Positions 28,091-62,415 of a stretch of 64,000 nt of DNA are shown here, piece by piece. This DNA is from Rhodamnia argentea (taxonomy: Eukaryota > Streptophyta > Magnoliopsida > Myrtales > Myrtaceae). The stretch lies in the NCBI RefSeq assembly GCF_020921035.1, contig NC_063157.1, forward strand, positions 22,089,015-22,153,014, read 5' to 3'. How positions within the stretch are numbered: position 1 is the first letter of the stretch; each line of letters starts with the position of its first letter. The notes below the pieces were generated by a model that did not search any database, was not told where the DNA came from, and was given only the letters and a program-made list of their open reading frames with translations. The translations under genes and the position numbers were made by a program.

Positions 28091-28093
28091 TCT

Positions 28094-28102: not shown

Positions 28103-28203
28103 CCCTTCTCTATCTCCTCCTCCTCCTCGAGTTTCAAACAACAAAGCCAAGCCAAAACCCACCAGAAGCCTCTGTTTCTCTTTCATCGTTTCACGCTGCG
28201 AAA

Positions 28204-37971: not shown

Positions 37972-38948
37972 TTGCGCTGAATCGTGGCCGTTGATTCCGG
38001 CGTCAAGGTGGGGGGAACCTCTTAAGATGATGATAAAAAGTTTGGGCGGGTCCTACTTCTTTTGTGGGTTTTGCCTGTGTGTGTCTGCCATGTGTTTGTG
38101 TAATGTTCAGAATGGCTTGTTTGTTTTTTTTTATTTATTCAAAAGGCTTCTTCTTTTGCTTTCGACTTTAGCCAGAGGAGTGGGCCCCGATGACCTGTGG
38201 AAAGGGTGGGGGCCAATCTGACGTTGGTGTCTGTATTATATTTGTGTTGTTGTTATCGTGAAGGTGATCTGTCGAATCAAAAATAAATCCAGAAAAAAAA
38301 AATGAGAAAAAAAAAATTGGAAGAAGAAGATATTCGCTCATCTCCACCAAGTCCGTCTTCAAGCACCTTTGATTGATTCCATCTTTCGGTTTGATTTTGT
38401 TGGCTTCTGTGATGTTGATTGCAAAATAATGGCGCGGATGAAATGACGGGCATGCTTATCTGCTTTCCACTTTGCCTTTTTTTTTTTAAAGCATCTTCGC
38501 TTTGTATATTCTCGTATTGAGAGGTCATTTCACGGTATTAATTATATGAGTTTCGCTGCCCCAAATTTAAAGTTGCTCACCGCTCTCAGAAGCAGTAAAC
38601 ATGCCACGTCTTCGCTAATGATGATCGTCGCATTGAAATTAGAGTTGGATGTACGAGCGGGAACAAACGCTTGGTGTTCATCCATAATTTAACAAAACGC
38701 GAACCAATGCTTGGTGTTCGAACAAACCCTAACTAGTTGGTTCCGGGCCGAAAGAGTGAATCAGATGACTCTTTCCTCTCCGTTTGTTTGCACTATGGGC
38801 TCAATGGGCCCTCGACCGTGGTCTGTCAGGCCTACGACAGACGAACCGAACGCCTTGCAACGACAGTGGCAGCAACCCCCGATCGAACCCTCCAGCACCC
38901 ACCCCCCACCCCCTTTCTTGTACACTATAATTAGTAAGGAAATATACT
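37972..38948 (+). other. PIP1 3' untranslated region and flank (parent of the duplicated copy)
   Basis: From about 38006 onwards nearly every base recurs at 51380 onwards. Polyadenylation probably falls in the AT-rich stretch near 38230-38320. No other gene seen. Confidence 0.5.
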
Positions 38949-39125
38949 GAAAGTCTTAAAATTTATTAAAAAAAAGTGCAATTGAGTTCTAAAATTATCA
39001 AAAAGTACAATCGAGCCCTAAAATTTTTAGGACTCGTTACACTTTCTGATAAGTTTTAAGATTTAATTGTATTTTTTAAAGTTTTAATACACAATTGCAC
39101 TTCCCTAATAAATTTTAGGACTTTC
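38949..39125. mobile_element. Small palindromic foldback element
   Basis: gaaagtcttaaaatttatta at the left is the inverse of the right end taataaattttaggactttc; both arms also carry gtgcaattg / caattgcac. About 177 bp. A partial copy lies at about 52262-52345 in block 2. Confidence 0.65.
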
Positions 39126-39404
39126 AACGCACTTATCTAAAAATATAACGAATCTCTCCTTGTTTCTCCTTGTTGGGCTCTTTCCTTATCGTAATGCTTA
39201 AAATAGTCTTTATTACTTATTAAGTCCTGAGTAATTTCATCAAATGGGTGGGTCACGTCGGGTTTGAATCGAGTAGCAAAAGATCTGGCCTACATAAATT
39301 TATTGGGCCTATTTTGATCTATTTACATCAATGCATATCTAGTTAACAACTTGGAATGGGATCCTTTTAAATAACACTTGGAAAGCTTCCACACGACGTC
39401 ATCA

Positions 39405-41564
39405 CTAGAGCCATGGGACATGCTTTTTGAGCACAACAATTGTGCTGACTCCCATCCTCCTTTCATTGGCCATATCGTCGCCTAGGATAACGGGAAGCTT
39501 CTCGCCATAGAGCTTGTCCATGACCTCCTCGCCGAGATGGTGCGAGATGATGGAACCGGTGTAGGATCTAGCATGTTTGGCCATCTTCCTTCCTCTGCTA
39601 CGAGGATCCTCGCCCGGCGTGGTTTCTCCGGCGTCGACCTCGATCATCTCCATGTGTTCGATCCGGAAGGACCCTTCTTCATCGACTATGCCTTGAACTT
39701 CCTCTGAAGATGCGGTGTAGTATGGCACGTTTAATGTGTCTAGTTTCTCTTCCTCGATGAACCCCTGAAACAAAGGTTCGGACGACGGAAAGATTGAAAT
39801 GCGAGAGTGAAAATCGTTTCCCCATGAGGTGCACCTTGAACTACGATGAGTCTAATGTACCTATCGAATGAGCATTTTTTTTTTTTAACTCTAGCACAAT
39901 TAATCTTATATCTGATTAATAACTGAAAAGCCAAACAAAGATTACTTACCTCTAAAACCAAATCGGCAATTGCTTCTCCAAGTTTCACCCAAATGTCAAG
40001 GCTGTCTAGGCTCGAAAAGTTCTCATCTTTCCTCCCGTGAAGTACTAACATGAGGCGACCGTCATCGACCATCTCTTCGCTGCGGGACTTAAAAAATGCC
40101 GATAGATCTGCTCGGAACTGAGCCAAGTATGCCTCCTTCACCATGCTGGGCTGGTCTTTGAGATGAAGATCTGTCCCTTGTTCAACGGGAGGCCTTCTTC
40201 GCTCGTGAGACTCGGTGCCTTTCATTTGCTTAACTTCCAAGTTAATGCAAGGATTAAGATTGGCATCCATCGTGATTATGCTGTGCTTTACAGCTCTATT
40301 TTGAGTATGTATACATTGGCGAGATTCGAACCCAAGTCCTGTTCTACTAAATTACAGAGAAACTAACTTTTCCAATTCCCTAATCACGAAAAAAAAACTC
40401 GGTGGAAAATCGAGAAAGAACGTGGAAACAGGAAGAAAAACGAACATACCAACGTCCATTGATGAATATGACGAATTCGGATGCGTAGCATAGAATGATC
40501 GGCTAAAACGGGATGCTATTAGCCAGTCCCCTCTACAAGGGATAGTGTGTATTCTCACTGTTAATGTACTTTCCTAAGGTACATCTAAAACTAACAAGAA
40601 AACTGACGTAGTGCATTCTAAGCTGTGTACTAAAACTGACGAGAAAACTGACATAATACATTCTAAAACTATATACTAAAATTGACGACAAGACGATTAT
40701 TATACGACTCATTTAAAAATTGCCGTTTGTCCCTTTCGGATAATTGTCTCCCATCAAGACGATTATTGGGTGAGACGGTTATCACGTAAAATTAATATGC
40801 GTTATATTACACTAATGAAATTAAATTTTAACTGAAGGTGGGATCTTGTTATTAACATTATAATAAGTCCATCAACTTAAAAACTGTTGAAAACTTATAA
40901 CAAAATCGATCGAATACAATATGATGCATCTCTCGCAGTGATGATCATATATGTGCAATCGGACTTACCCGAGACAGCCAATGGACGCTGTAGGAGGAAT
41001 AAGCGAGGTGCAAGCGGTTTCTAGGGAAGAGTCTTCCATGGAAAGAACCCGGAGCTCCCATTATGAATCACGACAAGCTTTCGTAGCTTCGCGCGAAGTT
41101 GGACAAGCTTTTGAACAGTGTGTTGAAATCGTTTCCTGGAAGATCGTTAAGATAAAATTGGAATTCGGGCGTCGGGCTGTTCGAGCGCGCGCACTTCTTC
41201 TGTACACTCTCTACAACGGCCGACATGAAAGTTGCCACGCTAGGACCCGAAGCGCAGCCCAAGTCGGCCACATTTAGAAGGTGGCACGGGAGGAAACCTT
41301 CCTCCAGCAGAGAATCAACCGCGCTCGTTGTCGCGGGCTTCGTTACTGACGTAACCTTTTGCCGTAGTGCAAGAAACGAATTCATTCTCATAAACCAACC
41401 CGATCCCGTAGTTTTAGACCGATCACGCGATTGGCGACCGGTCATGCCGATTCATCTAAGAAAGGGGGTATAAGTTGAATGAAACGAACCGTGTAGGTGG
41501 AGGTCCGAGCGTAGCTATCTTCGCCGTCTCCTCTTCTCATGAAGAGAACTTCTTTCACGTCCAT
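39405..41564 (-). pseudogene. SABATH carboxyl methyltransferase pseudogene, copy A
   Basis: SABATH enzymes transfer a methyl group from S-adenosylmethionine to small acids such as salicylate, benzoate or jasmonate, or to purine alkaloids. Four exons can be traced: 41490-41564 (MDVKEVLFMRRGDGEDSYA), 40969-41361 (with [12 protein letters not shown], the SAM-binding motif, and [12 protein letters not shown]), 39950-40218 and 39405-39764 ([16 protein letters not shown]). Three faults are seen. The acceptor before exon 2 reads cgg where its sisters have cag. A TGA at 41068-41070 replaces the Cys codon of ESLSCF. One G is missing near 40151 (gctgggctgg against gctggggctgg). It would be 365 aa if whole. 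The upstream flank holds LTR elements. Confidence 0.87.
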
Positions 41565-41859
41565 GGCGATTCCACGGGAAGTAAGCGTTGTGACGGTAAG
41601 CCCACCCTCTTCCCGCTGATCCCGCACCGTCGTTGCTTGAGAATATGCACCGGCACTTCCATTTCAGAAGGGAGAAGAAGAGGGGGGCTATCAAGAACAC
41701 TCGGGATTTCCTTCTTCCACCAACCGCCCAAGATTCTTTTTCCAAAGAACAAGAGCCACAAGTTATTATCATTTTTCTTTTTGGAAGATGTTGGCTTTGA
41801 CCGGATATAACATAGAAAATTGAAAGACCCCAAATCCAAATTCCATTCGCGTCACTAAT

Positions 41860-42050
41860 TATTGGAGTTATCCCACATCGATTGTGGAATGAGTTGGTGG
41901 TCGGTTTATAAATATGAGAAAAAATCTTATCATTTGAATTAGCTTTTGAGATGAGAGAGGCCCAATGCCACCCAATGCTGGCATCAGAGCCCGGGTTATG
42001 AACTAGCTTTTGAGATGAGGGAGAGATACCCAATGTCATCCAACACTGGT
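41860..42050 (+). mobile_element. TRIM-type LTR element remnant, block 1
   Basis: Begins ttattggagttatcccacat right after ctaat, and has a tRNA-Met primer site (ggcatcagagcccgggtta). Its partner at 57757-58038 is better preserved. This one is incomplete and was further split by the Ty1/copia element. Confidence 0.6.
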
Positions 42051-42055
42051 ATCGG

Positions 42056-42360
42056 TGTTGAGTCACGTGGACCATGTTTATTTATCTTATTATTTTATTT
42101 TAGTAGAATGATCGGTTGTTTAGTGTCCTAGTTATTAGGAGTTTGTTTTAGTGGTGCTGAACATGGCTTTGTGTTTTACCAAGTCAATAGGAGGTTTCTG
42201 CACAGTTCTTGTTTTTGAGGAGTTAGTGGATGCACTTTCTTTATTAACCGTTGGGTATGAGCTCTTTAAATGGAGCATCTGTTGTAAGTTTTTTTTGAGT
42301 AGTAAGGAATAAACGTACTCCATTGCATATTGTTAGTATCCTTTTTCTAATACCGTAACA
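42056..42360 (+). repeat. 5' LTR of the Ty1/copia element
   Basis: Begins TGTTGAGTCACGTGG and ends TAACA; contains tctttaaatgg as a possible TATA-like start signal. 305 bp. Confidence 0.93.
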
Positions 42361-42407
42361 GTGGTATCAGAGCCGGGTTGTGAGAAGAGAGCAGCAGCAA
42401 CTTTTCA

Positions 42408-45400
42408 ATGGCCACAGATAATTTCGTTCAGCCGGCTATCCCTCGCTTTGATGGTTACTATGATCATTGGAGCATGCTGATGGAGAATTTCCTGCGGTCC
42501 AAAGAGTAGCGGCATGTCGTTGATTCTGGAGTAGCGGAACCGGCGGCTGGAGTAGTGTTGACGGATACACAAAGAGCCGACTTAGATGCATTGAAGCTAA
42601 AGGATCTCAAAGCCAAAAACTACCTTTTTCAAGCTATCGATCGATCAACCTTGGAGACAATTCTTTGCAAAGACACCTCCAAGCATATTTGGGATGCAAT
42701 GAAGAAAAAGTATCAAGGGAACGCGAAGGCGAAGCGCGTGCAACTTCAAGGTCTTCGGACGGAATTTGAGAATTTACGCATGAAGACCGGTGAATCCGTT
42801 GCTGATTACTTATCAAGAACAATGACGATCACTAACAAAATGCGGATCCATGGCGAGAAGATGGGGGACGTCACCATCATCGAGAAGATTCTTCGATCAA
42901 TGACACCGAAATTTAATTTCGTTGTTTGTTCTATAGAAGAATCTAAAGATATTGATGAACTTTCAATTGATGAGTTGCAGAGTTCTTTCTTTGGTTCATG
43001 AGCAAAAAATTGTCCAGCAAGATAAAGAGGAACAAGCATTAAAGGCAGTATCCAATCCAAAGGGTCCCGATCGTGGGAAAGGGAGATGGAAGGATAAAGA
43101 TTTGCACCAGAAATCAAATGAGGATCATGCTACTGATTCCAAATGGAAAGCGAAAGGCCGTGACAACAACTATTCAAATGGCAACAAATCGAAGTCCGTA
43201 GACAAGTCAAATGTTGAATGTTATAGATGTCACGGGTATGGCCATTACAAGTTTGAATGTAGAACCAATCTCAACAAAAATCGTGGTGCAAAATCAAATT
43301 TTGCAGAGAAAGTAGAAGAAGTTTCGCTTTTGATGGCCTGTCATGCAAAAGAAGATGTTCATCACAATTTGTGGTATTTAGATACCGGCTGCAGAAATCA
43401 CATGTGTGGGGATAAGTCCGTATTTTCAGACTTGGATGAATCATTCCGTAACACTGTGACGTTTGGCGACAAATCTGTAGTTTCTGTCATGGGCAAAGGC
43501 AACGTTAAGATCCACACCAAGGAGAACTCTACTCAGATTATTTCTAACGTTTACTTTGTTCCAGATTTGAAAACCAACTTGCTTAGCATTGGTCGGTTAA
43601 AAGAGAAGGGATATGAGATCTCTATCAAGGATGGAGTTTGTCGCATTCAAGATGAAAAGTTGGGCTTAATTGCTCAAGTCAACATGACAACAAACCGGAT
43701 GTTTCCACTATATCTCGATAACACCACCCAATGGTGTTTCTCTGCGAGATTGAAGGACGAAGCCTGGTTGTGGCATTTTCGCTATGGACATCTGAATTTT
43801 GGTGGTCTAAAAACGCTGCAACAAAAGAATATGGTGACTGGTCTTCCGCAAATTCAAAGCCCTTCTCAAGTTTGTGAAGAGTGTGTTGTTGGCAAACAAC
43901 ATCGAGACCCGTTTCCGAAAGAAAAAACATGTAGAGCAAAGAAGGTGTTGGAACCGATTCATTCGGACTTATGCGGACCCATTAATCCAACATCAAACGG
44001 TGGTAAACGTTATTTTATAACGTTCATTGATGATTACATCCGGAAAACTTGGGTTTATTTTTTGCGGGAGAAGTCTGGAGCCTTTTTAGCTTTCAAAAAC
44101 TTCAAGGTATTAGTCGAAAAAGAAACAGGCATACTTATAAAGACTCTTCGCAGCGATCGTGGTGGAGAATATAACTCACAAGAATTCATAAATTTTTGTG
44201 AGACTCATGGAATTCAAAAACAGCTCACAACGGCCTATACGCCGCAGCAGAATGGCGTTGCAGAGAGGAAGAATCGCATGATCGTGAACATGGTACGAAC
44301 CATTTTGGCAAGAAGCGGTGTCCCAAGAAGTTTTTGGCCCGAAGCTGTCAATTGGAGCATTTATGTATTGAACAGAAGCCCTACACTTGCTGTTCAAAAC
44401 ATGACGCCTGAAGAAGCTTGGAGTGGACGCAAACCAAGTGTCGAGCATTTCAGAATCTTCGGTTGCATAGCATTTGCCCACATTCCAGATCAGAAGAGGA
44501 GCAAGCTTGATGACAAAGGTGAAAAATGTATTTTTCTTGGTGTTAGTGAGCAGTCAAAAGCATACAAATTGTACAATCCTATCACCAAGAAAATTGTCAT
44601 CGGTCGTGACGTGATTTTTGATGAAGAGTGGTTCTGGATTTGGGATGAAAAGAATGTTGAACAACAAATACAAGCTGATTTTGATGGAGAAAATGGAGAA
44701 AAAATGCAGCAGCCTTTGGAGAATGCACAACCTGTAGAAAATGAGCATCAACCAGCTATCAATGAACGTATTTCAGCCTCTGAAAAAGAAGATGAGCAAC
44801 GACTCCGACGAGTTAGAAAAAGGCCTGCATGGATGACTGATTATGAGGTAACCGGGATTGACCAAACCGAAGACCCCTTTACTCATTTTGCTTTATTTTC
44901 AGATTGCGATCCAATGGCTTTCAAAGATGCCGTTAAAGAACCAAAATGGCGGAAGGCGATGGATGTTGAAATTGCAGCCATTGAAAGAAATAATACTTGG
45001 GAGTTGACAGAACTTCCAAAAGGGCAAAAGACCATTGGCGTGAAGTGGGTGTACAAGACGAAGCTGAAGGAGAATGGTGAAGTTGATAAGTATAAAGCTC
45101 GATTAGTTGCAAAAGGCTACAAGCAAGAGTTCGGCATTGACTACAAAGAAGTTTTCGCTCCAGTTGCCCGACATGACACAATCAGATTGGTGATTGCATT
45201 GGCGGCGCAAAACTCATGGCCTATCTTCCATTTGGACGTGAAATTGGCATTTTTACATGGCGACTTGGAAGAGCAGGTATTTATTGATCAACCTCCTGGT
45301 TATGTGAAGTTTGGAAGTGAGCACAAGGTGTATAAACTAAACAAGGCTTTATATGGACTAAAACAAGCTCCAAGGGCTTGGTATAATCGTATAGAGGCCT

Positions 45401-46440
45401 ATTTTCTGAAGGAAGGTCTTCACAAGTGTCCATATGAGCATACACTTTTTGTCAAAATTGGAGATGGAGGGAAGATGCTTATTGTTTGCTTATATGTGGA
45501 TGATTTGATCTATACTGGAAATGATAGAGCCATGTTTGAAAAATTTAAGCAGTCTATGATGCTTGAATTTGATATGTCTGATCTTGGAAAGATGCACTAT
45601 TTTCTTGGGATAGAAGTTGTTCAATTTGCTGGTGGAATTTTTATTTCACAAAGAAAATATGTGCAAGACATTTTAGACAGGTTCCAAATGAAGGATTGTA
45701 ATCCTTCTAGCACACCAACCGAGGTGGGTTTGAAGTTAGTGAAAGATTCTGAAGGAAAGAAGGTTGACAGCACTATGTACAAGCAAATTGTGGGAAGCTT
45801 GATGTATTTAACTGCAACAAGGCCAAATATAATGTACTCTGTGAGTCTTATAAGTAGGTACATGGAGAATCCTACTGAGATGCATCTCTTTGCTGCCAAG
45901 AGAATTTTTCGATACTTGCAAGGTACGACCGGCTTTGGACTGCTCTACAAGAAGGGAGAAAACTCAAGCTTGATGGGCTTCACTAACAGTGATTATGCTG
46001 GAGATCAAGATGATAGAAGGAGCACTTCCGGATATGTATTTATGTTGGGTTCGGGAGCTATCTCATGGTCATCAAAGAAGCAGCCGATTGTCACTTTATC
46101 AACCACTGAAGCTGAATTTGTTGCTGCAACCTCATGTGCTTGTCAAGCTATTTGGTTGGGGAAAATTCTTGAAGAACTTCATTTCAAGAGTCAAGGACCT
46201 ACTGCAATTTATTGTGACAATAGTTCAGCAATAAAGCTCTCCAAAAATCCTGTTTTACATGGAAGAAGCAAACATATAGATGTGAAGTTTCACTTCTTAA
46301 GGGATCTCACGAAGGAAGGAGTCATAGATCTCATCTACTATAGAAGTGAAGATCAGGTTGCTGATATCTTTACTAAATCCCTCAAGTTGGCTGCATTTCA
46401 AAAGTTGAGAAACCCGCTTGGTATTGACAAGTTGTATTAA
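42408..46440 (+). other. gag-pol region of the Ty1/copia element (fossil)
   Basis: Order of parts: UBN2-type gag, zinc knuckle CYRCHGYGHYKFEC, aspartic protease (LDTGCRNHMCG), integrase with H-H-C-C zinc site and GPINPTSNGG core, reverse transcriptase with YVDDLIYTG, and RNase H ending at NPLGIDKLY. The integrase-before-RT order defines copia. About one or two breaks in the gag part; the pol part reads open. Confidence 0.9.
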
Positions 46441-46477
46441 ACTGAATGTTGGCAAACTTTCGGTTTAAGGGGGGGAA

Positions 46478-46783
46478 TGTTGAGTCACGTGGACCATGTT
46501 TATTTATCTTATTATTTTGTTTTAGTAGAATGATCGGTTGTTTAGTGTCCTAGTTATTAGGAGTTTGTTTTAGTGGTGCTGAACATGGCTTTGTGTTTTA
46601 CCAAGTCAATAGGAGGTTTCTGCACGGTTGCTGTTTTTTAGGAGTTAGTGGATGCACTTTCTTTATTAACCGTTGGGTATGAGCTCTTTAAATGGAGAAT
46701 CTGTTGTAAGTTTTTTTTGAGTAGTAAGGAATAAACGTGCTCCATTGCATATTGTTAGTATCCTTTTTCTAATACTTGTAACA
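46478..46783 (+). repeat. 3' LTR of the Ty1/copia element
   Basis: About 97% identical to 42056-42360. 306 bp. Confidence 0.93.
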
Positions 46784-47235
46784 ATCGAACCCAGGTTATT
46801 AACAAGTCTTGACCCAATAGTCACACGGGAAAGATATGGGATCTTTCTACTCATCACCATTCATAAGGCGGCAAACTTTTTGGATTACCCAATCCACTAA
46901 AGTATCTTACCTAAATAAGATCGGTAAACTCTTGTTATTTTCTTAATTGCACGACGTTACCCTAAAGTATCGACGGGGAGAGATGGAGGCCGCTGTCGAT
47001 CCAAATGTTATTATTATGCTTCGAGAGGAAGTTTTCAAATTTTTACCCACCGATTGCTTTTAAATACTATCGAAGAATGGGAACTTACTTTCTTACAAAA
47101 AAAAAAAAAAGGCTGCGTAATTAATTGGCGAGTGAAAGAAGAAAAATGAAAAAAGGGTGTGGAGATGGGCAGCTGAATAAAAAAGGTGAAGGGTATGGGG
47201 CAGAGAATATTAGCAGGGCATGGGCGGGTTCGGTA

Positions 47236-47395
47236 TCGTGGTAAGGACCGACCAGGAGCGCTGCCCAAATCAGCCACCGATGGAGAAGCTTAGCACGGGG
47301 AAGAAACATTTCACGAGCAGAGACGCAATCTTTTGTTGTGATCGCGAGAAATGAATTCGCCCTGCTAAACCGACCCGATCTCATAGCTTCGATAA
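47236..47395 (-). pseudogene. SABATH exon-2 relic, block 1 (first)
   Basis: On the minus strand, gatcgggtcggttt, aattcatttctcgcgat, caaaagattgcgtct, gtttcttccc and gctgatttgggcagcgct align in order with the start of SABATH exon 2 in copies A-D, with internal losses and several indels. Nothing beyond the glycine-rich SAM motif remains. Confidence 0.65.
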
Positions 47396-47469
47396 ACATA
47401 TCGAACCAAAGTTTCAAATATAATCGAAAAAAACATTCGTATTACTTGAATTACCGTTGGCTATTGATC

Positions 47470-47680
47470 GATGCCGCCGGTCACTCTAGGGCCTAGCGCA
47501 CCGCTCAAAGCAGCCACACATAGATGCTTGCATGGGAACCGACCGTACTCCTATCATGAGCTTGGCTACGGATGCAATTCTTTGAAGCAACGAGGGAAAT
47601 CATGTCTAATTTATCTAGAAAATTCAACCACTATTAAACAAAGAAGCTGCAGTTAATTTCCTAGATTCGTATCCATAAAC
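47470..47680 (-). pseudogene. SABATH exon-2 relic, block 1 (second)
   Basis: A second, separate match to the intron 1/exon 2 start of copies B and D: ctaggaaattaactgcagcttctttg, agaattgcatccgtagccaagctc and gtgtggctgctttgagcgg. Heavily decayed. It shows that the array once had more genes. Confidence 0.55.
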
Positions 47681-47998
47681 CAACTTGATTTCGTACTTGA
47701 GAGAGAACATTGGACCACGTCATTTAATTTTCTTAGTAATGACCTAATCAGCAATTACTAGGCCGAATAATAAAAAAACTTGTCCAAATCCAATGTGCAC
47801 TTTGGGCTGAAGAGGCTCAAGGCCGTTTATGTCCGAACGCCTCGCATCCGCGGTGGCCACAGCCCCAGTAAAGCCCACGACCACCCCTCCCCTGCTTCTG
47901 TGATTGTGCCCATGGCCTTGTTAACAATAATTGATAAGGAAAATAAAATGGCTCTATTGATATTTCTCCTCGTTACAATCGAGATCACCTCACCCTTG

Positions 47999-48583
47999 AG
48001 ACAACCGTTCAAAAAGCACTCTTGTCAATTCAATTCTAAATCTTTTAATTATATTAGTTGAGTCTATCTGGCCAACTTTAGCCTGAAAATTACCGATGTG
48101 GATGACGGCCGTCTTACGTGACACGGTCAGTACTGACGTGAATAATTTTTAATAATAATTTTTTGATTTTTTTTATTAACTTTCATAATCTGTTCTTTTC
48201 TTTGTGTTTTTTTTCCCCTTACTACTGGGCAAGACCATCATGGTCGTAGGCGAGGTAGCCTTACTTAGATTTGGACAAGGGTCGCCAAGCCCATGCCTGT
48301 AGCCACACTAGTAAAAAAAAAAAGGTAAAAAAGAAAAGAAAAAAGAAAACATATATAAAAAACATTAAAACATTAAATACAATTAATAACTATTCACGTC
48401 AACGTCGATCGTGCCACGTAGGACAACCGACATCCATATCGGCGATTTTCGACTAAAATTGGCCGAATAGATTGAATTGTCAAAACGTAAAAATGCTTAA
48501 GACTTTATTAGCAAAATTTAAAAAAAGTTTAGTACTGAATTGACAAAAACATCAGCATGTTTACGATTTTTTGGACAATTTGC
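47999..48583. mobile_element. Mutator-like MITE (common family), copy 5
   Basis: Family block cacgtcaacgtcgatcgtgc with partner gatgacggccgtcttacgtg and T-rich and A-rich arms; right tip acgattttttggacaattt. It lies between the relics and SABATH B. The same insertion occurs in block 2 (59263-59843), so it predates the duplication. Confidence 0.65.
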
Positions 48584-48646
48584 CCCTCTCTCTCGCAAAC
48601 AAGGAATCACTTCAAATGACACTTGGTAATGGAGACCGACACTGAG

Positions 48647-51057: not shown

Positions 51058-51379
51058 GGCGAAGAGATTTGATCACTGAGCTCTTGATAGCCGTAAGTTT
51101 TAATAAAATGGTCAGCAACTTCCAATCCGGAGAGGAGAAGAAGAGTGGGCTATCTTATCATGTTGATTCCATCAAGTTCTTTTATTAATTCTGTCAACTT
51201 TTTTTTTTTTTTGGGGCCAAAACTCCATCAACTTGATAAATGAAAAATATTGACAAGTTTTAAAACTTCATTACACCAACTTCACAAGTTTTAGAACTAA
51301 CTCGCACGCCTCGTCACACGAATAATATCGACTTTAGCCAGAGGAGTGGCGTGTGGGGGCCAATCTGACGTTGGTTTGT

Positions 51380-52260
51380 GGTTCGGGGGAACCGCTTAAG
51401 GTGATGATAAAAAGTTTGGGCGGGTCCTACTTCTTTTGTGGGTTTTGCCTGTGTGTGTCTGCCATGTGTTTGTGTAAAGTTCAGAATGGCTTTTTTTTTT
51501 TTTAATTCAAAAGGCTTCTTCTTTTGCTTTGGACTTTAGCCAGAGGAGTGGCCTGTGGGGGCCAATCTGACGTTGGTGTCTGTATTATATTTGTGTTGTT
51601 GTTATCGTGAAGGTGATCTGTCGAATCAAAAATAAACCCAGAAAAAAAAATGAGAAAAAAAATTGGAAGAAGAAGATATTCGCTCATCTCCACCAAGTCC
51701 GTCTTCAAGCACCTTTGATTGATTCCATCTTTCGGTTGATTTTGTTGGCTTCTGTGATGTTGATTGCAAAATAATGGCGCAGATGAAATGCTGGGCATGC
51801 TTATATGCTTTTCACTTTGCCTTTTTTTAAGAGCATCTTCGCTTGGTATATTCTAGTATTGAGAGGTCATTTCACGGTATTAATTATATGAATTTCGCTG
51901 CCACTAAAATTTAAAGTTGCTCACTGCTCTCAGAAGCAGTGAACATGCCACGTTTTCGCTAATGATGATCATCGCATTTAAATTAGAGTTGGATGTATGA
52001 GCGGGAACAAGTGCTTGCTGTTCGAACAAACCTAATTTGTTGGTTCGGGCCGAAAGAGTAAATCAGATTGACTCTTTCCTCTCCATTTATTTGCAATATG
52101 CGCTCGGTAGGCCCTCGGCCATGGTTGTCAGCCTATGACGGACGAACCGAACGTCTTGCAACAGCGGTGGTAGCAACCCCGATCAAACCCTCGAGCACCC
52201 ACCCCCCACCCCGTTTTCTTGTACACTATAATTAGTAAGGAAATCAAAAGAGATAAATAT
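51380..52260. repeat. Duplicated PIP1 3' flank
   Basis: Matches 38006-38940 with scattered substitutions and small indels (gatgataaaaagtttgggcg, gggttttgcctgtgtgtgtc and so on). A second, shorter copy of the 38160-38225 part precedes it at 51331-51376. No aquaporin coding exon is included. Confidence 0.88.
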
Positions 52261-54101
52261 ATCGAAAGTATTAACATTTATTAAAAAAAGTGCAATTGAG
52301 TCTTAAAATTATCAGAAAATGCAACGAGTCTTAAAAATGTTAAGACTTACAAATGATCTGTCCTAAATAAATTTATTTGACCTATTTTGATCTATTTACA
52401 TCAATGCAAATCTAGTTACCAACTTGGAATGGAATCCTTTTAAAAAACACTTGGAAAGCTTCCACATGGCGTCATCACTAGAGCAATGGGACGTGCTTTT
52501 TGAGCACAACAATTATGGTGACTCCCATCCTCCTTTCCTTAGCCATATCATCGCCTAGGATGGTGGGAAGCTTCTCGCCATAGAGCTTGTCCATGACCTC
52601 GCCGAGATGGTGCGAGATTATGGAACTGGTGTAGGATCTGGCATGCTTGGCCATCTTCCTTCCTGTGCTACAAGGATCCTCGCCCGGCGTGGTTTCTCCG
52701 GCATCGACCTCGATCATCTCCATGTGTTCGATCCGGAAGGACCCTTCTTCATCGACTATGCCTCGAACTTCCTCTGAAGATGCCGTGTAGTACGGCACGT
52801 TTAATGTGTCTAGTTTCTCTTCCTCGAGGAACCCCTGAAACAAGGTTCGGACGACGAAAAGATTGAAATGCGAAAGTGAAAATCGTTTCCCCATGAGGTG
52901 CACCTTGAACTAGGATGAGTCTAATGTACCTATCGAATGAGCATTTTTTTTTTTTAAAACTCAAGGACAATTAATCTTATATCTGATTAATAACTGAAAA
53001 GCCAAACAAAGATAACTTACCTCTGAAACAAAATCGGCAATTGCTTCTCCAAGTTTCTCCCAAATGTCGAGGCTGTCTAGGCTCGCAAAGTCCTTATCTT
53101 TCCTCCCGTGAAGTACTAACATGAGGCGTCCGTCATCGACCATCTCTTCGCTGCGGGACTTAAAAAATGCCGATAGATCTGCTCGGAACTGAGCCAAGTA
53201 GGCCTCCTTCACCACGCTGGGGCTGGTCTTTGAAATGAAGATCCGTCCCTTGTTCAACGGGAGGCCTTCTTTGCTCGTGAGACTCGGTGCCTTTCATTTG
53301 CTTAACTTCCAAGTTAATGCAAGGATTAAGATTGGCATCCACCGTGATTATGTTGTGCTTTATGTTGACACCTAAATTTTAATTTTTTTAGTAAATCATT
53401 TATTTAAGCACAAAATGAGAATTAACATTAGTTCTCGTCAAAAATTAATTTCTCATGCATCGTATTTTTATTTTTATTTTTGTCAGTCATACTTGCATAT
53501 AGACCAGAGGTGAGTCAATTGAGCTTAATTTGACGAGCGATTGCACCAGACTTAATCTGAGAATTTCGACTAAGATAGGTAGGGGGTGCCGATATTAATT
53601 AGGCTATATTGGACCTATTTTGAGCTGAAATCAGTTCATTTAAAAATTAAGGCTTTTAACTACATGTTAGAAAGTCTTAATTCAATCCCGGAAATTCGCG
53701 AATGAGCCCACGAGAACACAAATTCGACCAAGCCCATTGCACATATTAAATAGCCGAAAATTGCAATAAATAAATGCCAAATTGGAAAATGTTAGATAAT
53801 TGAGCAATCTTGATTTGAATATATCTTTTAGGCTCTAGATTAGGAAAATAACATATTTTGCTCTTAAAGAAAACCCTAAATCTAAGCCTATATAAGCATA
53901 ACTTTGCTCACAATATGGGGGAGGCCACTTCATTGTAATACATGGCCATAGGGGGTGACTCAATTCAATAGGCGACATTGAGGCCACAATTCTGAATACA
54001 TGACCAAAACAATTCTCACGACAGAATACTCAGAAAATAAGAGAGGAAGAGTGGAAGGCTCGGCTAGAAGGAGAGGAAGGGTTTCTTGGCTTTTTACGAA
54101 A

Positions 54102-54130
54102 AGAAGAAGAAGAAGAAGAAGAAGAAGAAG
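54102..54130. repeat. (GAA)n microsatellite in the solo LTR
   Basis: About nine GAA units. Confidence 0.9.
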
Positions 54131-55487
54131 GGTCAAGAACCTTGAAGAACCGTCCACAAAGATCCAGGCCTCTGGGTAATTTCCAGACTTGGATAAGATT
54201 CCACCTGGAGGTATTCTTTTGGAGAGACAATCACTTGCATAAGTTGAGGTATTCACGTGTTGAATGACTCAATTCTCAGACGTCAAAAGGGAAGTTTTTC
54301 TCTAACAATGTGTTTGACTCCATTAGATTCTTATTGTTATTAAGTTATATCAATTCCAAAATCAGAAAGCTTCCCAATTCCTTTTTGTCGCAGGCTCTCA
54401 TTCGATCTCACCCAGTCGTGGACGAGTCGTCCTCAAGTAAAACCATCAGAGACATTCTAGTCCTTGTCGCATCAAAGTTTACTTGCGTTCATTGGGAGCG
54501 ACGATGACACCTTCATCATGCCCAAGCATTTGTCATCTACTTAATTGTTTATTTAATCCTCGGTGGAGTCCTCTGACTTGCGACCACATTCGAGGAGTCC
54601 ACTAACTCAATTATTGGCTTTGGCTTAAGTTTGGTTTAAGTTATTAAATCTGCAAGCATTGTTGTACTTGCCAAAGTGTCCCATCGAAAGTCCTTCCACC
54701 ATGATCATCCGTATGCATGTGAGCTCCGCCGGTCCAATCCATAAGCGATCTCAAGCAATTCGATCTAATTCGAATTAAGAAGGGTATCCGCAAGATAGGT
54801 AAAATTCCGATTTTAAATATTTTTATTGCCTATCTTGGATATATTTGCATATCTTACGTTTGCATATTTGAGCATATCTTGCATAGCATCAAAGTGGATA
54901 TTTTTTCAAAATATAGGCTGATTAGAAAAATTTCTTTTCCTAATCCGTAACTTGCCATACAATCGAGAACGTCCATCTTTAAGATTATTGATGGAATATT
55001 CGATTAGGCAAGGACTTGAGTTCAATCGTTAATCGTATGATTACGAATTAAAGATTGACTCAAATATTTGCGAAATATTTCAAAACTTGATTGATATATC
55101 CACTTTCTTAATTGACATTGGTTGGTATATTCACTTTCCTCATTTGATTTGAATTGTTTGATTGTCATATCTTTTAGAATATATCCGTCGTAATCTCGAA
55201 AATTCTAAAAGATTTGCATTTATTCACTTTGCATATCTAAAAATTGCATATTTTAAAAAAATAACATCATGTAGATATTGCATATCTAAATTTTTATTTA
55301 GGTTAGATTGCATACTAGAATAGAAATTGCATGTTTAAATAGAATCTTATGTTTAAAATAATATATCTTCAATATATTAGGTTTAGGTCAATGTAAACTC
55401 TAAAATATACAAGATAAAAATTGTTTTGACATAGTTCTATTTTAGGAAATTAATTCATCCGAAAATATAAAAAAAATCATTCATCCT

Positions 55488-55541
55488 TGCCACGTCATAC
55501 ATGCCACGTCATCTATGCCACGTCATCTTTGCCATGTCATA
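55488..55541. repeat. 15-bp tandem repeat, about 3.5 copies, in the solo LTR
   Basis: Unit tgccacgtcatctat with small changes; each unit has a CACGTCAT core resembling an ACGT (bZIP) element. Confidence 0.8.
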
Positions 55542-57756
55542 CTAGGTTGCATTTTAGCTTAAATTGTATATTAGAATTGCATGTCTTCGTTTTAATTAAT
55601 ACACGTGTCACGGAGTTAATTTAATCATGGTCCTACTTGTGCATTCATTTAGTTTGCATGTAATCTAGTTTAGTCTTGCATTTAATCCATGCCATTGCAT
55701 ATAGTGTAGTCTCTCATGCATTCATATAAAAATCGAAAATTTAAAAAAAGAACTATCTTGGGTGGCGCATGCTCCCTTGATTATATTGACTTTTGGATAT
55801 TCATTAATTGATTGTGCACCCGTATGATAACCTTTGTTAGTGGCTTAGGTTAAAATCAATTAATGTTGCCTTTTCTAATGATTTTTCATGAAATAAAATG
55901 GTACCGAAAGGGCGTTAGAGTAATCTGGCGTAATCAAGTCCCCGAACTTTTAATCTCTGGTTCGTAGGAATAAAATAGTTCTTCCGCTATTTTATTTAGG
56001 TTTCTAATCAACCTACCATAAATGATTAGTGGCGGCTCCAAAATTAAAATACATTATATGTTAATCAATTGAACCTCAAGTTGCGATTTGGTATGGACTT
56101 GGGAGAGTCCGAGTTAGGTTGGTTAAATAGTTAACCCGATAATCCATTAGCCTGATATTTTTTTGAATTTTTAGGTCGCGACACTTTACAGCTCTATTTT
56201 GAGTATGTATACATTGGCGAGATTCGAACCCAAGTCCCGTTATACTAAATTACAAAGAAACTAACTATCCTGATTCCCTAATCATGAAAAAAAAAACTCC
56301 ATGTAAAATTGAGAAAGAATGTGGAAACGGGAAGAAAACGAACATACCTACGTCCATTGATGAATATGATGAATACGGATGCGTAGCATAGAATGATCGA
56401 CGAAAACGGGGTGCTATTAGCCAGCCCCCTCCACGAGGGATAGTACGTATTCTCACTGTTAACGTACTTTCTTAAGGTACATCTAAAACCGACAAGAAAA
56501 CCGACGTAGTACATTCTAAAACCGTGTACTAAAACCGACGAGAAAATTGACGTAGTACATTGTAAAACTATATACTAAAACCGACGACGGGACCATTATT
56601 AAACAACCCGTTTAAAAATTGCTATTCGCCCCTTTTAGATAATCGTCTCCCATAAAAACGATTATTGGGCGAGGCAATTATCATGTAAAATTAATACGCG
56701 TTATATTACACTAATGAAATTAAATTTTAACTGAATGTGGGATCCTATTTTTAACATTATAATAAGTCCATTTACTTAAAAACTGCTGAAAACTTATAAC
56801 AAGATCGATGGAATACAGTATGCATCTCTCACAGTGATGATCATATATGTGCAATCGGATTTACCTAAGATAGCCAATGGACGTTTGTAGGAGGAATAAG
56901 CGAGGTGCAAGCAGTTTCTAGGGAAGAGTCTTCCATGAAAAGAACTCGGAGCTCCCATTATGAAGCACAACAAGCTTTCATAGCTTCGCGCGAAGTTGGA
57001 CAAGCTTTTGAACAGCGTGTTGAAATCGTTTCCTGGAAGATCGTTAAGATACAATTGGAATTCGGGCGTCGGGCTGTTCGAGCGCGCGTTACTTCTTCTA
57101 TACACTCTCTACGACGGCCGACATGAAAGCCACCACGCTAGGACCCGAAGCGCAGCCTAAGTCGGCCACATTTAGAAGGTGGCACGGGAGGAAACCTTCC
57201 TCCAACAGAGAATCAACCGCGCTCGCTATCGCGGGCTTCGTTATAGACGCAACCTTTTGCTGTAGCGCAAGGAACGAATTCATACTCATAAACCAACCCG
57301 ATCCCGTAGTTTTAGACCGATCACGCAATTGGCGACCGATCATGCTGATTCATCTAAGAAAAGGGGTATAAGTTGAATGAAACGAACCGTGTAGGTGGAG
57401 ATCTGAGCGTAGCTATCTTCGCCGTCTCCTCTTCTCATGAAGAAAACTTCTTTCACGTCCATGGCGATTCCAGAGGAAGTAAACGTTGTGACGGTAAGCC
57501 CGCCCTCTCCCCGTTGATCCCGCACTGTTGCTGCTTGAGAATATGCACCGCGCTTCCATTTTAGAAGGGAGAAGAAGAGGGGGTCTATCAAGAACACTCG
57601 GGATTTCCTTCTTCCACCAACCGCCCAAGATTCTTTTTCCGAAGAACAAGAGCCACAAGTTATTATCATTTTTCTTTCGGGAAGATGTTGGCTTTGACCG
57701 GATATAACTTAGAAAATTGAAAGACCCCAAATCCAAACTGCATTCGCGTCACTAAT

Positions 57757-58038
57757 TGTTGGAGCTATCCTATATGGATTATGAAATGGGTTAGTGGTCG
57801 GTTTATAAGTATGATGAAAAGTCTCATCCTTTGAACCGGCTTTTGAGATGAGAGAGACCCAATGCCATCTAACACATGTATTAGAGCCCAGTCCAAGTTA
57901 TCGGTAAGTCTGGACCCAACGGTCATACGGGAGAAGTCATACAGTAGAGATATGACCCAATGCTCGATGTGTGAGGGGGAGATTGTCGGAGTTGTCCCAT
58001 ATCGCCCGATGTATAAAAGAGGCTAATATCACCCAACA
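57757..58038 (+). mobile_element. TRIM (miniature LTR element), block 2
   Basis: 282 bp. Left LTR 57757-57874 (tgttggagctatcc...taaca), primer site tgtattagagccca, purine tract gtgtgagggggaga (57971-57984), right LTR 57984-58038 (tgtcggagttgtcc...caaca), shorter than the left. Perfect 5-bp duplication ctaat at 57752-57756 and 58039-58043. Non-coding. Also present in block 1, hence older than the duplication. Confidence 0.8.
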
Positions 58039-58499
58039 CTAATGATTGTATGATGGGGGAGTAACAAGATTCTTGAGGTCATTAGTATCTCTCGAGACTA
58101 ATCTTTCTACTCATCACCATTCATAAGGTGGCTAACTTTTCGGGGCTACCCAATCCACTAAGGTGCCGTACCGAAATAAGATCGGTAAACTCTTTTATTG
58201 TTTTCTTAATTGCACGACCTTACCGTAAAGTATGCACAGTAGAGATAGAGGCCGCTGTCGATCCAAATATGATTATTATGCTTCGAGAGGAAGTTTTTAA
58301 ATTTTTACCCACCGATTGCTTTTAAATACTTTCGAAGAACGGGAACTTACTTTCTTACAAAAAAAAAAAAAAAAAGGCTGCGTAATTAATTGGCTAGTGA
58401 AAGAAGAAAAATGAAAAAATGGTGTGGAGATGGGCAGCTGAATAAAAAAGGTGACGGGTATGGGGCAGAGGACATTAGCAGGGCATGGGCGGGTTCGGT

Positions 58500-58660
58500 A
58501 TCGTGGTAAGGACCGACCAGGAGCGCTGCCGAAATCAGCCACCGATGGAGAAGCTTAGCACGGGGAAGAAACATTCCACCAGCAGAGACGCAATCTTTTG
58601 TTGTGATTGCGAGAAATGAATTCACCTTGCTAAACCAACCCGATCTCATAGCTTCGAGAA
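58500..58660 (-). pseudogene. SABATH exon-2 relic, block 2 (first)
   Basis: Near-identical partner of 47236-47395. The same internal losses show that decay began before the block duplicated. Confidence 0.65.
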
Positions 58661-58734
58661 AAATATCGAACCACAGTTTCAAATATAATCAAAAAAACAT
58701 TCATATTACTTGAATTACCGTTCGCTATTGATCG

Positions 58735-58950
58735 ATGCCGCCGGTTACTCTAGGGCCCAGAGCATAGCTCAAATCAGCCACACGTAGATGCTTGCATGGG
58801 AATCGACCATACTCCTATCATGGGCTTGGCTATGGACGCAATTCTTTGATGCAACGAGGGAAATCATGTCTAATTTACCTAGAAAATTCAACTACTATTA
58901 AACAAAGAAACTGCAGTTAATTTCCTAGATTCGTATCCATAAACCAACTT
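58735..58950 (-). pseudogene. SABATH exon-2 relic, block 2 (second)
   Basis: Near-identical partner of 47470-47680. Confidence 0.55.
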
Positions 58951-59262
58951 GATTTCGTACTTGAGAGAGAACATTGGACCACATCATTTAATTTTCTTAG
59001 TAATGACCTAATTAGTAATTACGAGGCCGAATAATAAAAGAACTTGTCCAAATCGATTTTGCACGTTGGGCTGAATTGGCTCAAGGCCGTTTATGTCCGA
59101 ATGCCTCGCAGCCGCAGCGGCCACAGCCCCAGTAAAGGCCATGACGACCCCTCCCCTGCTTGTATGATTGTTACCCATGGCCTTGTTAACAATAATTGAT
59201 AGGAAAATAAAAGGGCTCTCTTGATATTTCTCCTCGTTACAATCAAGGTCACCTCACCTTGG

Positions 59263-59843
59263 GACAACCGTTCAAAAAACACTTTTATCAATTCAATTCT
59301 AAATCTTTTAATTATGCTAATTGGGTCCATCCGGCCAACTTTGACCTGAAAATTACTGGTGTGAATGACGGTCGTCTTATTTGGTATGACCAGCGCCGAC
59401 GTGAATAATTTTTAATAATAACTTTTTGATTTTTTATTAACTTTTATAATTTGTTCTTTTCTTTGTGTGTTTTTTTTTTCCTTATTACTAGGCGAGACCA
59501 TCATGGTCGCTGGCGAGGTAGCCTTACTTAGATTTGGACGAGGTTCGCCAAGCCCATGCCCATAGCCACACTAGTAAAAAAAAGGTAAAAAGGGAAAAGC
59601 AAAGAGAAAACATATATGAAGAACATTAAAACATTAAATACAATTAATAACTATTCACGTCAACGTCGATCGTGCCACGTAGGACAACCAACATCCATAT
59701 CAGCGATTTTCAACTAAAATTGACCGAATAGATTGAATTGTCAAAACGTTAAAATGCTTAAGACTTTATTAGCAAAATTAAAAAAAAGTTTAGTATTGAA
59801 TAGACAAAAGCATCAACATGTTTACGATTTTTTGGACAATTTG
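59263..59843. mobile_element. Mutator-like MITE (common family), copy 7
   Basis: Block-2 partner of the copy at 47999-48583, with the same arms and same neighbours. Confidence 0.65.
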
Positions 59844-59907
59844 CGCCTCTCTCTCGCAAACAAGGAATCACTTCAAATGACACTTGGTAACGGAGACCAA
59901 CACTGAG

Positions 59908-61716
59908 TCATGGGACGTGCTTTTTGAGCACAACAACTATGCTCACTCCCATCCTCCTTTCCTTAGCCAAATCATCACCTATGAGAATGGGAAGCTTCTC
60001 GCCATAGAGCTTGTCCATGATCCCCTCGCCAAGATGGTGCGAGATTATGGAACCGGTGAAGGATCTGGCATGAGAAGCCGCCTTCCTTCCTCTGCTATGA
60101 GGATCCTCGCCCGGCGAGGCTCTGTCGATCTTCATTATCTCTATGTGTTCGATCCGGAAGGACCCTTCTTCATCGACTATGCCTCGAACTTCCTCTGAAG
60201 ATGCCGTGTAGTACGGCACGTTTAAGGTGTCCAGCTTCTCTTCCTCGACGAAACCCTAAAACAAGGTTCAAACGAAGATGAGATGGAAAAGTTGAAAGCA
60301 AGAAGCGTTTCACCATGGGACACACCTTGACGTAGTATGAGTCTTAACATACATCGAATTTGATTTTTCTTTTCCTATTAAAGCGCCATTAATCTCGTAA
60401 TATATGAAAGTTGAAAAGCCGATTTATGATAACTTACCTCTGAAACCAAATCCGCGATTGCCTCTCCAAGTTTTTCCCAAATGAAGTAGCCGTCTAGGCT
60501 CGCAAAGTCCTTATCTTCCCTCCCGTTGAGTATTAGCACGAGGCGACCATTATCGACCATCTCTTTGCCGCGGGACTTCAGAAATGTCGAGAAATCTGCT
60601 CGGAACTGAGCCAAGTAGGCCTCCTTCACCACGCGGGGGCTGGTCTCCGAGATGTAGATCCTTCCCTTGTTCAACGGGGAGCCTTCTTCGCTCGTGAGAT
60701 TCGGGACCTTTCATTTGCTTGAGCTTCAAATTAGTGCAGGATTAACATGGACTTCCATTGTGATTACGCTGTGCTTGCATTACCAGCTCTATGCATAGTC
60801 GAATGAGAAGTGGCGAAATTCGTTAACATGATCGGTCAAATAATTGGACTTCTATTGTGATTTTTTTTTATAGTAATTTTCCAACACAAGATCTGTAATA
60901 TATTGCAAACTTTATTGGGAAAGGTATGTTTCCCAATAATAGCATCGCAGTAAGTATTTGCACTACAGATATATGCGATCAAATTTACCTGAGATAGCCA
61001 ATGGACGCTATAGGAGGAATGAGCGAGGTGCAAGCAGTTGCTAGGGAAGAGCCTTCCATGGAAAGATCCCGGAGCCCCCATTACGAAGCACGACAAGCTT
61101 TCGTAGTCTTGCGAGAAGTTGGACAAGCTTTTGAACAGCGTGTTGAAATCGTTCCCGGGAAGATCGTTCAGATAAAATTGGAATTCGGGCGTCGGGCGGT
61201 TCGAGCGTGCGCACTTCTCCCGCACACTCTCGATGACGGCCGACATGAAGGTCACCACGCTAGGACCCGAAGCGCAGCCTAAATCGACCACATTCAGGTG
61301 CTGGCACGGGAAGAAACCTTCCTCGAGCAGAGAATCAACTGCGCTCGCTATCGTGGGCTTTGCCAAAGACGCAATCTTTTGCTGTTAACGCAAGAAACAG
61401 GGATCTAATGTATCCTGTGAATTCAACCATTTCCTAATTGACTAGATAGCAAAGAAACTTTACTTAATTTCCTAGATGCAATTTGATAGATTCGTTCTTA
61501 CGAACCAACCCGAGCCCGCAGTTCAGATAAAAAATGCCGAACCATGGCGATTCGTCCTGCCTATTACTCTGGAAATTACAAAAGACAGCGAAGAAGAAGA
61601 AGAAAGAACGTGAAGGGAGAGTTTAATCGAAGGAAACAAACCGTATGGGTGGAGGTACGAGCGTAGCTATGTTCTCCGTCTCCTTTGCTCATGCAGAGAA
61701 CTTGCTTCACGTCCAT
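59908..61716 (-). CDS. SABATH carboxyl methyltransferase, copy D (intact)
   Basis: Block-2 partner of copy B. Four exons: 61642-61716, 60989-61381, 60438-60707 and 59908-60255, GT-AG, phase 0, 361 aa. Exon 1 encodes the same 25 residues as copy B. The SAM loop is [10 protein letters not shown], with a Val where A-C have Ala. The substrate-pocket segment reads [11 protein letters not shown], with His at residue 152. Exons 3 and 4 keep [12 protein letters not shown] and [16 protein letters not shown]. Intron 2 is short (281 bp) because most of the MITE seen in copy B has been lost. No faults seen. The substrate is unknown; the differences from B at the pocket suggest the two may not be equivalent. 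Confidence 0.9.
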
Positions 61717-61822
61717 GGCGAAGAGATTTGATCACTGAGCTCTTGATAGCCGCAAGTTTTAATAAAATGGTCAGCAACTTCCAATCCGGAGAGGAGAAGA
61801 AGAGTAGGCTATCTTTCGTAAT

Positions 61823-62110
61823 CGAGAATGCTTTATTACTCCTTTTCTCCCACTAAATTCCGGATTTCGTTTGTTTGTTTTGTGTCCAATCGTTGTCGTT
61901 CCACAGGTTGTCGTACCATAATTCAGGTTGGTGGGTATCACATGGTTTCTTTTTACATCAAAGACGTCCTTCTTTGACGGGTAGGCTTTGAATCCCAAAA
62001 ATACTTCAAGAAGCTCGCGCATCGGATTAGTTACTTCAAAAGGATAAGTGTATTAAAAATGCTAAAACTTGTCAAGAAAATACAGTTGAATCATAAAACT
62101 TTTGAAAAAT
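61823..62110. other. Segment upstream of copy D with no counterpart upstream of copy B
   Basis: Flanking sequence on both sides matches block 1 (left side ends gaagagta/tgggctatctt, right side resumes near gttgattccatcaag). About 290 bp is either gained here or lost in block 1. No gene recognised. Confidence 0.55.
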
Positions 62111-62415
62111 TGTAATCGAGTCGTAAAACTTATCACGTTGATTCCATCAAGCTCTTCTATTAATTCCGTCAAAAATTTATTTTTTTAGGTCAAAACTCCG
62201 CCAACTTGATAAACGGAAAATGTTGACAAGTTTTAGAACTTGATTACACCAACTTGACAAGTTTTAGAACTAACTTGCATGCCTCGACACACGAAGTCGG
62301 CTCCACGTGTCTACGGCTCGCGCGTCTAGCCGGTCCGCGGTCGGCCGTCCAAGCTTTCGAAAAATCAGAGGCCATAAAAAGGCCGAGAAAGTGCGGAGAA
62401 TCCCAAAAGCAATCT

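What the first reader, a model, noticed from the sequence alone, without database searches (positions are those of the whole stretch)
38006..62295. Tandem block duplication that carries a whole SABATH mini-cluster
Two adjacent blocks share one order of parts: PIP1 3' flank, SABATH (A or C), TRIM, two relics, MITE, SABATH (B or D). A pairs with C and B pairs with D, so a multi-gene block duplicated as a unit rather than gene by gene. Each block then gained its own LTR insertion.
Basis: seen in the sequence. Interest (0 to 1): 0.7.

Follow-up and report, generated by a model that had tools for sequence, protein, structure and literature searches.

The report
Duplicated block of caffeine-synthase-type methyltransferase genes
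A stretch of plant chromosome holding two related small-molecule methyltransferase genes was copied as one unit next to itself; in both copies one gene has decayed and the other still looks usable, which is an ordinary kind of gene-family growth with a readable scar at the join.

Summary
Between an aquaporin gene and an eIF3f-like gene lie two collinear blocks (38011-51322, 51385-62295), each with two SABATH genes. A pairs with C and B with D; other pairings are rejected (AU p<0.001). Transversions are evenly spread over the blocks (p=0.19), as one event predicts; transitions are not.

Additions. (1) Of 32 own-genome SABATH genes in a tree, only A-D group with the caffeine-synthase (CS)-type enzymes of yerba mate and Camellia (100/100). 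(2) B and D are intact four-exon genes of 361 aa; A and C carry different lesions, so the A-type gene was lost twice. (3) The 62-bp junction holds a 46-bp copy (45/46) of sequence just inside the unit: this points to template switching or end joining, and away from crossing-over between repeats or an assembly mis-join. (4) Block 1 gained a Copia element, block 2 a solo LTR. (5) B/D have Asn at specificity site 221, B also at substrate-binding site 155. (6) A second SABATH block duplication lies on C6.

A known kind. No reads or related plant genomes could be examined.

The parts
36752..37971 (+). PIP1-type aquaporin gene (left neighbour; coding part not duplicated)
Evidence: PF00230 MIP matches on two exons; stop codon read at 37969-37971. 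Block homology begins at 38011.
38011..51322 (.). Block 1 of the tandem duplication (genes A and B)
   Evidence: Collinear BLAST and global alignment with block 2.
51323..51384 (.). Junction filler; 51330-51375 is a 46-bp templated copy of 51532-51577 (45 of 46 identical), in direct orientation
   Evidence: Local alignment score 87 against a maximum of 29 in 1000 shuffles of the filler. A search of the genome with 51200-51400 gave 21 matches; only the window itself covers the whole query, the rest cover parts.
51385..62295 (.). Block 2 of the tandem duplication (genes C and D)
   Evidence: As block 1.
39405..41564 (-). SABATH gene A, pseudogene
   Evidence: PF03492 matches. In-frame TGA in exon 2 and a 1-nt deletion in exon 3; changed splice acceptor before exon 2, read by eye.
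48647..51057 (-). SABATH gene B, intact: exons 51057-50983, 50722-50330, 49445-49176, 48994-48647; 361 aa
   Evidence: Gene model with GT-AG introns; PF03492 343.5 bits.
52478..57462 (-). SABATH gene C, pseudogene, split by a 2.8-kb insertion in intron 2
   Evidence: Two 1-nt insertions and stop codons in exon 2, none shared with A.
59908..61716 (-). SABATH gene D, intact: exons 61716-61642, 61381-60989, 60707-60438, 60255-59908; 361 aa
   Evidence: Gene model; PF03492 352.6 bits.
42056..46783 (+). Copia-type LTR retrotransposon private to block 1; LTRs 42056-42360 and 46478-46783
   Evidence: LTRs differ at 8 of 305 sites, K=0.027; Retrotran_gag_2, rve and RVT_2 domains; flanks ATCGG / ATCGA, an imperfect 5-bp target-site duplication.
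53363..56183 (.). Insertion private to block 2, in intron 2 of C; most simply a solo LTR, ends TG...CA, duplicated CTTTA at 53358-53362 and 56184-56188
   Evidence: dispersed family (58 matches listed; 40 of 3662 candidates scored), several copies in pairs about 9 kb apart.
49593..50190 (.). 598-bp stretch in intron 2 of B, absent from D; holds short inverted repeats and pieces dispersed in the genome
61816..62128 (.). 313-bp stretch between D and the eIF3f-like gene, absent from block 1
62609..62905 (+). Start of the right neighbour, an MPN/JAB-domain gene (eIF3f-like); coding part not duplicated
   Evidence: PF01398 JAB 49.7 bits. The ATG position is counted from the ORF; the name eIF3f is recalled, not tested. 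Block homology ends about 314 bp before that ATG.

Best explanation
An ancestral CS-type SABATH gene between the aquaporin and the eIF3f-like gene first duplicated into a pair (proto-A and proto-B). Later the whole stretch, from the aquaporin 3' flank to about 0.3 kb before the eIF3f-like start codon, was copied once in direct tandem with both genes and the repeats already there. The join was made without long homology, most likely by replication-template switching or polymerase-theta-type end joining, leaving a 62-bp filler with a 46-bp copy of nearby sequence. Afterwards both A-type copies (A, C) decayed separately while both B-type copies (B, D) kept their reading frames; a Copia element entered block 1 and a solo LTR remains in C. 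Shown: block structure, pairing, gene states, filler. Inferred: the repair pathway, that B and D are working enzymes. The stated confidence is for the block duplication with separate decay; the repair pathway alone is less certain, about 0.65.
For: Collinearity. Pairing 98.4/100 for A+C and 98.6/100 for B+D; rival pairings rejected at AU p=0.00026 and 0.00025. Even transversions over 30 bins (p=0.19; 76 and 81 per 3750 sites in the two halves) against uneven transitions (p=6e-20). Filler 45 of 46 identical to nearby sequence, and no match of the filler to either outer flank above the shuffle maximum of 29 (scores 14 and 19). dS A-B 0.34, C-D 0.25, A-C 0.16, B-D 0.09. No disabling lesion shared by A and C, none in B or D. 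A and C share 6 extra bases in exon 4 that B and D lack. Copia LTR K=0.027 against block K=0.072.
Against: dS of A-C (0.158, bootstrap 0.108-0.224) exceeds that of B-D (0.088, 0.050-0.126); I put this down to extra transitions in decayed, perhaps methylated copies, but methylation was not measured. dN/dS of B-D is 0.39 (0.22-0.76), yet that of the pseudogene pair A-C is 0.47 (0.31-0.69), not clearly different, so the ratio alone does not prove that B and D are still under selection; their open frames are the better argument. The left end (38011-38500, K=0.027) and the stretch upstream of B exon 2 (K=0.030) are closer than the rest, so a later local gene conversion is not excluded. The filler shares two short indels with block 2 but two bases at its 5' end with block 1; without an outgroup this cannot be polarised. 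No reads across the join.
Confidence: 0.85

Rival explanations
1. Assembly artefact: two haplotypes of one locus were placed one after the other, so block 2 is the allele of block 1.
For: The pattern aquaporin-A-B then C-D-eIF3f is what a haplotype mis-join would look like, and both blocks end in sequence flanking the same two genes. No reads were available.
Against: Divergence of 6.9% over 7530 sites and dS 0.09-0.16 would be very high for alleles (general knowledge; heterozygosity of this plant was not measured). The join carries a 62-bp filler with a templated copy, which a mis-join would not create. Searches of the assembly found long matches to three stretches of the blocks only in this window; the other matches were short dispersed repeats, and one search scored 40 of 590 candidates, 40 of 2203.
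Confidence: 0.06
2. Unequal crossing-over between repeats at both ends of the unit (non-allelic homologous recombination) made the block duplication.
For: This is the usual textbook route to tandem duplications; dispersed repeats occur in the interval.
Against: The filler matches neither outer flank beyond the shuffle maximum (scores 19 and 14 against 29; the shuffles were aligned to block 2, a target of similar length), and it contains templated sequence. Repeats since lost cannot be excluded.
Confidence: 0.12
3. Two separate gene-by-gene duplications, A to C and B to D, later made alike by gene conversion.
For: Identity varies from 78% to 99% in windows of up to 150 sites.
Against: Noncoding sequence between and around the genes is collinear in one order and transversions are homogeneous.
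Confidence: 0.02
4. A variant of the best explanation: the exchange joined two diverged homologous chromosomes, so the blocks differed from the start.
For: The filler and block 2 share the short form of two indels that block 1 has in the long form.
Against: Block 1 could have changed afterwards; no outgroup. Even transversion density does not separate the two.
Confidence: 0.2

Closest known systems
CS-type SABATH enzymes: yerba mate IpCS3 (8uzd), Camellia CkTcS and CkTbS (6lyh, 6lyi)
   Same: D matches them over its length at 371-377 bits against 268 for Clarkia SAMT and 220 for coffee XMT; one clade with A-D at 100/100. Site 25 is Thr in A-D as in CkTcS and CkTbS, though also in one SAMT-like gene of this genome (C1_32924).
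   Different: Sites 10-11 are Ser-Lys in B/D and Arg-Arg in A/C where IpCS3 and CkTbS have Asn-Gly; site 353 is Gly in A-D; substrate unknown.
Tandem CS cluster IpCS1-3 of yerba mate (PMC11709435)
   Same: Recent tandem CS-type duplicates; IpCS1-3 are 86-91% identical in protein by that paper (section 14), B and D 92.2%. One of the sites studied there, 221, also differs between A/C and B/D here.
   Different: There three active enzymes; here a two-gene block copied as a unit with two of four genes decayed and no assay.
Two-gene SABATH block duplication at G000:C6 27.807-27.841 Mb, same genome
   Same: Two SABATH genes in one collinear copy: 9.8 kb at 96.1%, start to start 24 kb.
   Different: Another SABATH subfamily, more alike, with other sequence between the copies. 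In the protein tree 27814 and 27838 pair (100/82), but 27808 and 27832 do not form a clade.

Membership tests
SABATH methyltransferase family | PF03492 (Methyltransf_7) over its cut-off | tested here: met
   B 343.5 and D 352.6 bits, cut-off 29.8; A and C match exon by exon.
SABATH methyltransferase family | Methyl transfer from SAM to a carboxyl or ring nitrogen | not testable with these tools
   No enzyme assay.
CS-type (caffeine synthase) clade | Groups with known CS-type enzymes apart from SAMT and XMT | tested here: met
   100/100 with IpCS3, CkTcS and CkTbS in a tree of 37 sequences; only five outside enzymes were included, none from Theobroma or Paullinia.
CS-type (caffeine synthase) clade | Xanthine N-methylation | not testable with these tools
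   Sites mapped only: 221 Asn in B/D and His in A/C; 155 Asn in B and His in A and D.
Tandem segmental duplication | Two adjacent, same-strand, collinear copies including noncoding sequence | tested here: met
Tandem segmental duplication | Gene relationships follow block order (A with C, B with D) | tested here: met
Tandem segmental duplication | Physical continuity across the junction in the plant | not testable with these tools
   No reads available.
Non-allelic homologous recombination product | Shared repeat at the join and both outer ends | tested here: not met
   Scores 14 and 19, shuffle maximum 29.
Template-switch / theta-type end-joining product | Templated insertion at the join | tested here: met
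   46 bp, 45 identical. Which pathway: not testable here.

The most novel reading that the evidence does not exclude
The B/D lineage is an independent step along the route by which caffeine-making plants recruited CS-type genes: after the A-B split it acquired Asn at site 221, as yerba mate IpCS3 did, and after the block duplication B alone changed the substrate-binding His155 to Asn, so that B and D now methylate different small molecules, possibly xanthine-like.
Probability: 0.12. Interest if true: 0.6.

Novelty: new member of a known kind. Interest (0 to 1): 0.33.

Why it matters
CS-type genes have been recruited for caffeine in several plants, each with recent duplications of its own (PMC11709435, section 14). 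This locus shows a CS-type pair copied as a block, one member lost twice and the other kept twice, with changes at sites known to matter for substrate choice, so retention and divergence after one dated event could be tested directly. The join keeps a scar that tells how the duplication was made.

Tried and rejected
Identity alone as a clock: rejected, because windows range from 78% to 99%; transversions gave an even picture. Of 358 transitions 138 lie at a CpG in one copy, but no expected number was computed, so methylation stays an inference. Reading Thr at site 25 as loss of a ligand-binding Gln (recalled from SAMT): dropped when CkTcS and CkTbS proved to have Thr there. The species was not identified: 11 large contigs, 346.7 Mb; a Myrtaceae guess is recalled knowledge, and one search (listing only) did not settle it. 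The solo-LTR reading rests on ends, duplicated site and missing second LTR, not on a curated family. The C1 cluster was not examined for block order at DNA level.

Papers: PMC11709435, passages and section 14; PMC10853004, outline with abstract; all others only as search listings. No paper that by its title treats CS-type SABATH genes of Myrtaceae was among the 20 of 29 papers listed or the 12 of 18; PMC13376665 (on IAMT) holds all three terms and was not read. That is not proof of absence.

Tree: 33 own-genome loci and 5 PDB enzymes went in; C8_4408 was dropped for fewer than 150 aligned residues, leaving 37 (32 own-genome, A-D included). Places that I did not put in: C1 32.946, C1 33.025, C1 33.013, C3 23.217, C5 8.687, C5 8.722, C7 23.684.
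Full report
What was checked. The window lies at G000:C8:22089015-22153014 of a 346.7-Mb genome in 74 contigs. Self-BLAST shows two collinear blocks, 38011-51322 and 51385-62295. Global alignment of the shared segments gives 7530 aligned sites with 516 differences, 6.9%. Within-block matches (A~B, C~D) are lower, 81-87%.

Borders. The left neighbour is a MIP-family aquaporin gene ending at 37971; block homology starts at 38011, in its 3' flank. The right neighbour is a JAB/MPN-domain gene whose start codon I place at 62609; homology ends at 62295. Neither neighbour's coding sequence was duplicated; the unit is the interval between them. A search with 37860-38420 gave three matches in the genome: the window itself, the copy in block 2, and a short match on C9 to the aquaporin's last exon.

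The join. Between the blocks lie 62 bp (51323-51384). Of these, 51330-51375 are a direct copy of 51532-51577, 45 of 46 identical; the score is 87 against at most 29 in 1000 shuffles of the filler. The filler matches the outer flanks with scores of only 14 and 19. The donor lies about 150 bp inside the left end of the unit. Copying a nearby stretch into a join is what template switching or polymerase-theta-type end joining leaves (established knowledge; several titles in the listing concern such events, none was read). The filler and block 2 share the short form of two indels that block 1 shows in the long form, while two bases at the filler's 5' end match block 1, so the copied template may have been another allele, or one block changed later.

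One event. If the blocks arose at once, neutral change should be even. Over 30 bins of 250 sites transversions are even (chi-square p=0.19; variance/mean 1.2), with 76 in the first 15 bins (nearly all A/C half) and 81 in the other 15 (B/D half), summed from the listing; transitions are very uneven (p=6e-20; variance/mean 5.2). Region-specific deamination of methylated cytosine would give this; it was not measured. Against a simple clock, dS is 0.158 for A-C and 0.088 for B-D, and the first 0.5 kb of the blocks has K=0.027 against 0.072 overall.

Genes. B and D each have four exons with GT-AG introns and encode 361 aa; both match PF03492 at profile positions 13-335 of 335. They are 92.2% identical in protein, with no indel between their coding sequences, and dN/dS 0.39, bootstrap range 0.22-0.76. 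The pseudogene pair A-C gives 0.47, 0.31-0.69, so this ratio by itself does not set B-D apart; part of the A-C divergence may date from when those genes still worked. A has an in-frame TGA in exon 2 and a 1-nt deletion in exon 3 and a changed acceptor before exon 2, with another AG six bases on (read by eye). C has two 1-nt insertions and stop codons in exon 2 and a 2.8-kb insertion in intron 2. None of these is shared. A and C each have 6 extra bases in exon 4 that B and D lack, with different gap placement in the two alignments. So the A-type gene was probably still intact at the block duplication and was lost twice.

Tree. In a tree of 37 sequences A+C has 98.4/100 and B+D 98.6/100 (SH-aLRT/UFBoot), and A-D join IpCS3, CkTcS and CkTbS at 100/100; none of the other 28 own-genome genes in the tree falls there. 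The pairings A+B/C+D and A+D/B+C are rejected (AU p=0.00026 and 0.00025). The alignment was anchored on D; own-genome rows kept cover 161 to 361 of its 361 positions.

Specificity sites. In the yerba mate study five changes made together, among them T25S and H221N, raised activity of an ancestral CS enzyme with theobromine, and His155 and Trp156 bind the substrate in IpCS3 (PMC11709435, passages). In SAMT, H150M at the equivalent place was reported to switch preference from benzoic to salicylic acid, though it was probably not the historical change (PMC10853004, abstract). Mapped here, site 221 is Asn in B and D and His in A and C; site 155 is Asn in B and His in A and D; Trp156 is kept in A, B and D; in C this stretch is out of frame, where the translation reads His-Trp. 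Sites 25 and 265 are Thr and Tyr in all four, as in the ancestor before IpCS3; site 22 is Ser and 23 Thr. These are pointers to substrate change, not evidence for xanthine alkaloids: of the five IpCS3 changes only the one at 221 is matched.

Later insertions. The Copia element in block 1 has LTRs differing at 8 of 305 sites (K=0.027), against K=0.072 for the blocks, so it entered at roughly a third of the blocks' age if rates were equal; eight differences make this rough. The 2821-bp insertion in intron 2 of C has TG...CA ends and a duplicated CTTTA, and no LTR pair of its own; relatives occur in pairs about 9 kb apart, some about 15 kb, so it is most simply a solo LTR. Two smaller stretches, 49593-50190 and 61816-62128, are each in one block only.

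Elsewhere in the genome. At C6 27.807-27.841 Mb two SABATH genes of another subfamily lie in a 9.8-kb unit found twice at 96.1%. In the protein tree 27814 pairs with 27838 (100/82) but 27808 and 27832 do not form a clade, so there the DNA diagonal is the evidence. Block-wise growth is thus not confined to this locus.

Verdict. A real tandem block duplication, correctly read by the first stage, of a known kind. Its value lies in the readable join, in the repeated loss of one gene type and retention of the other, and in the CS-type identity.

Noticed in passing
G000:C6:27806800-27816507 and 27830810-27840579 (L039-L043): A second SABATH two-gene unit present twice as a block, 96.1% identical over 9.8 kb.
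   Followed up: partly
G000:C1:32.77-33.03 Mb (L020, L021, L023-L025, L027-L029): A SAMT-like SABATH cluster of about ten genes, all matches on the minus strand; nearest relatives among the eight in the tree appear in mirrored order (32771 with 32969, 32797 with 32924).
   Followed up: no
window 38162-38228 and 51532-51577: Block 1 has a longer form of the aquaporin 3' flank by two short indels; block 2 and the junction filler share the short form.
   Followed up: partly
window 42555-46440: Copia element with a gag-like ORF and a pol-like ORF in different frames that overlap near 42952-43001.
   Followed up: no
window 28072-29631: Hs1pro-1-type gene in one open frame, both Pfam parts present.
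   Followed up: no
window 2365-3552: Arginine-tRNA-protein transferase C-terminal domain on the minus strand.
   Followed up: no
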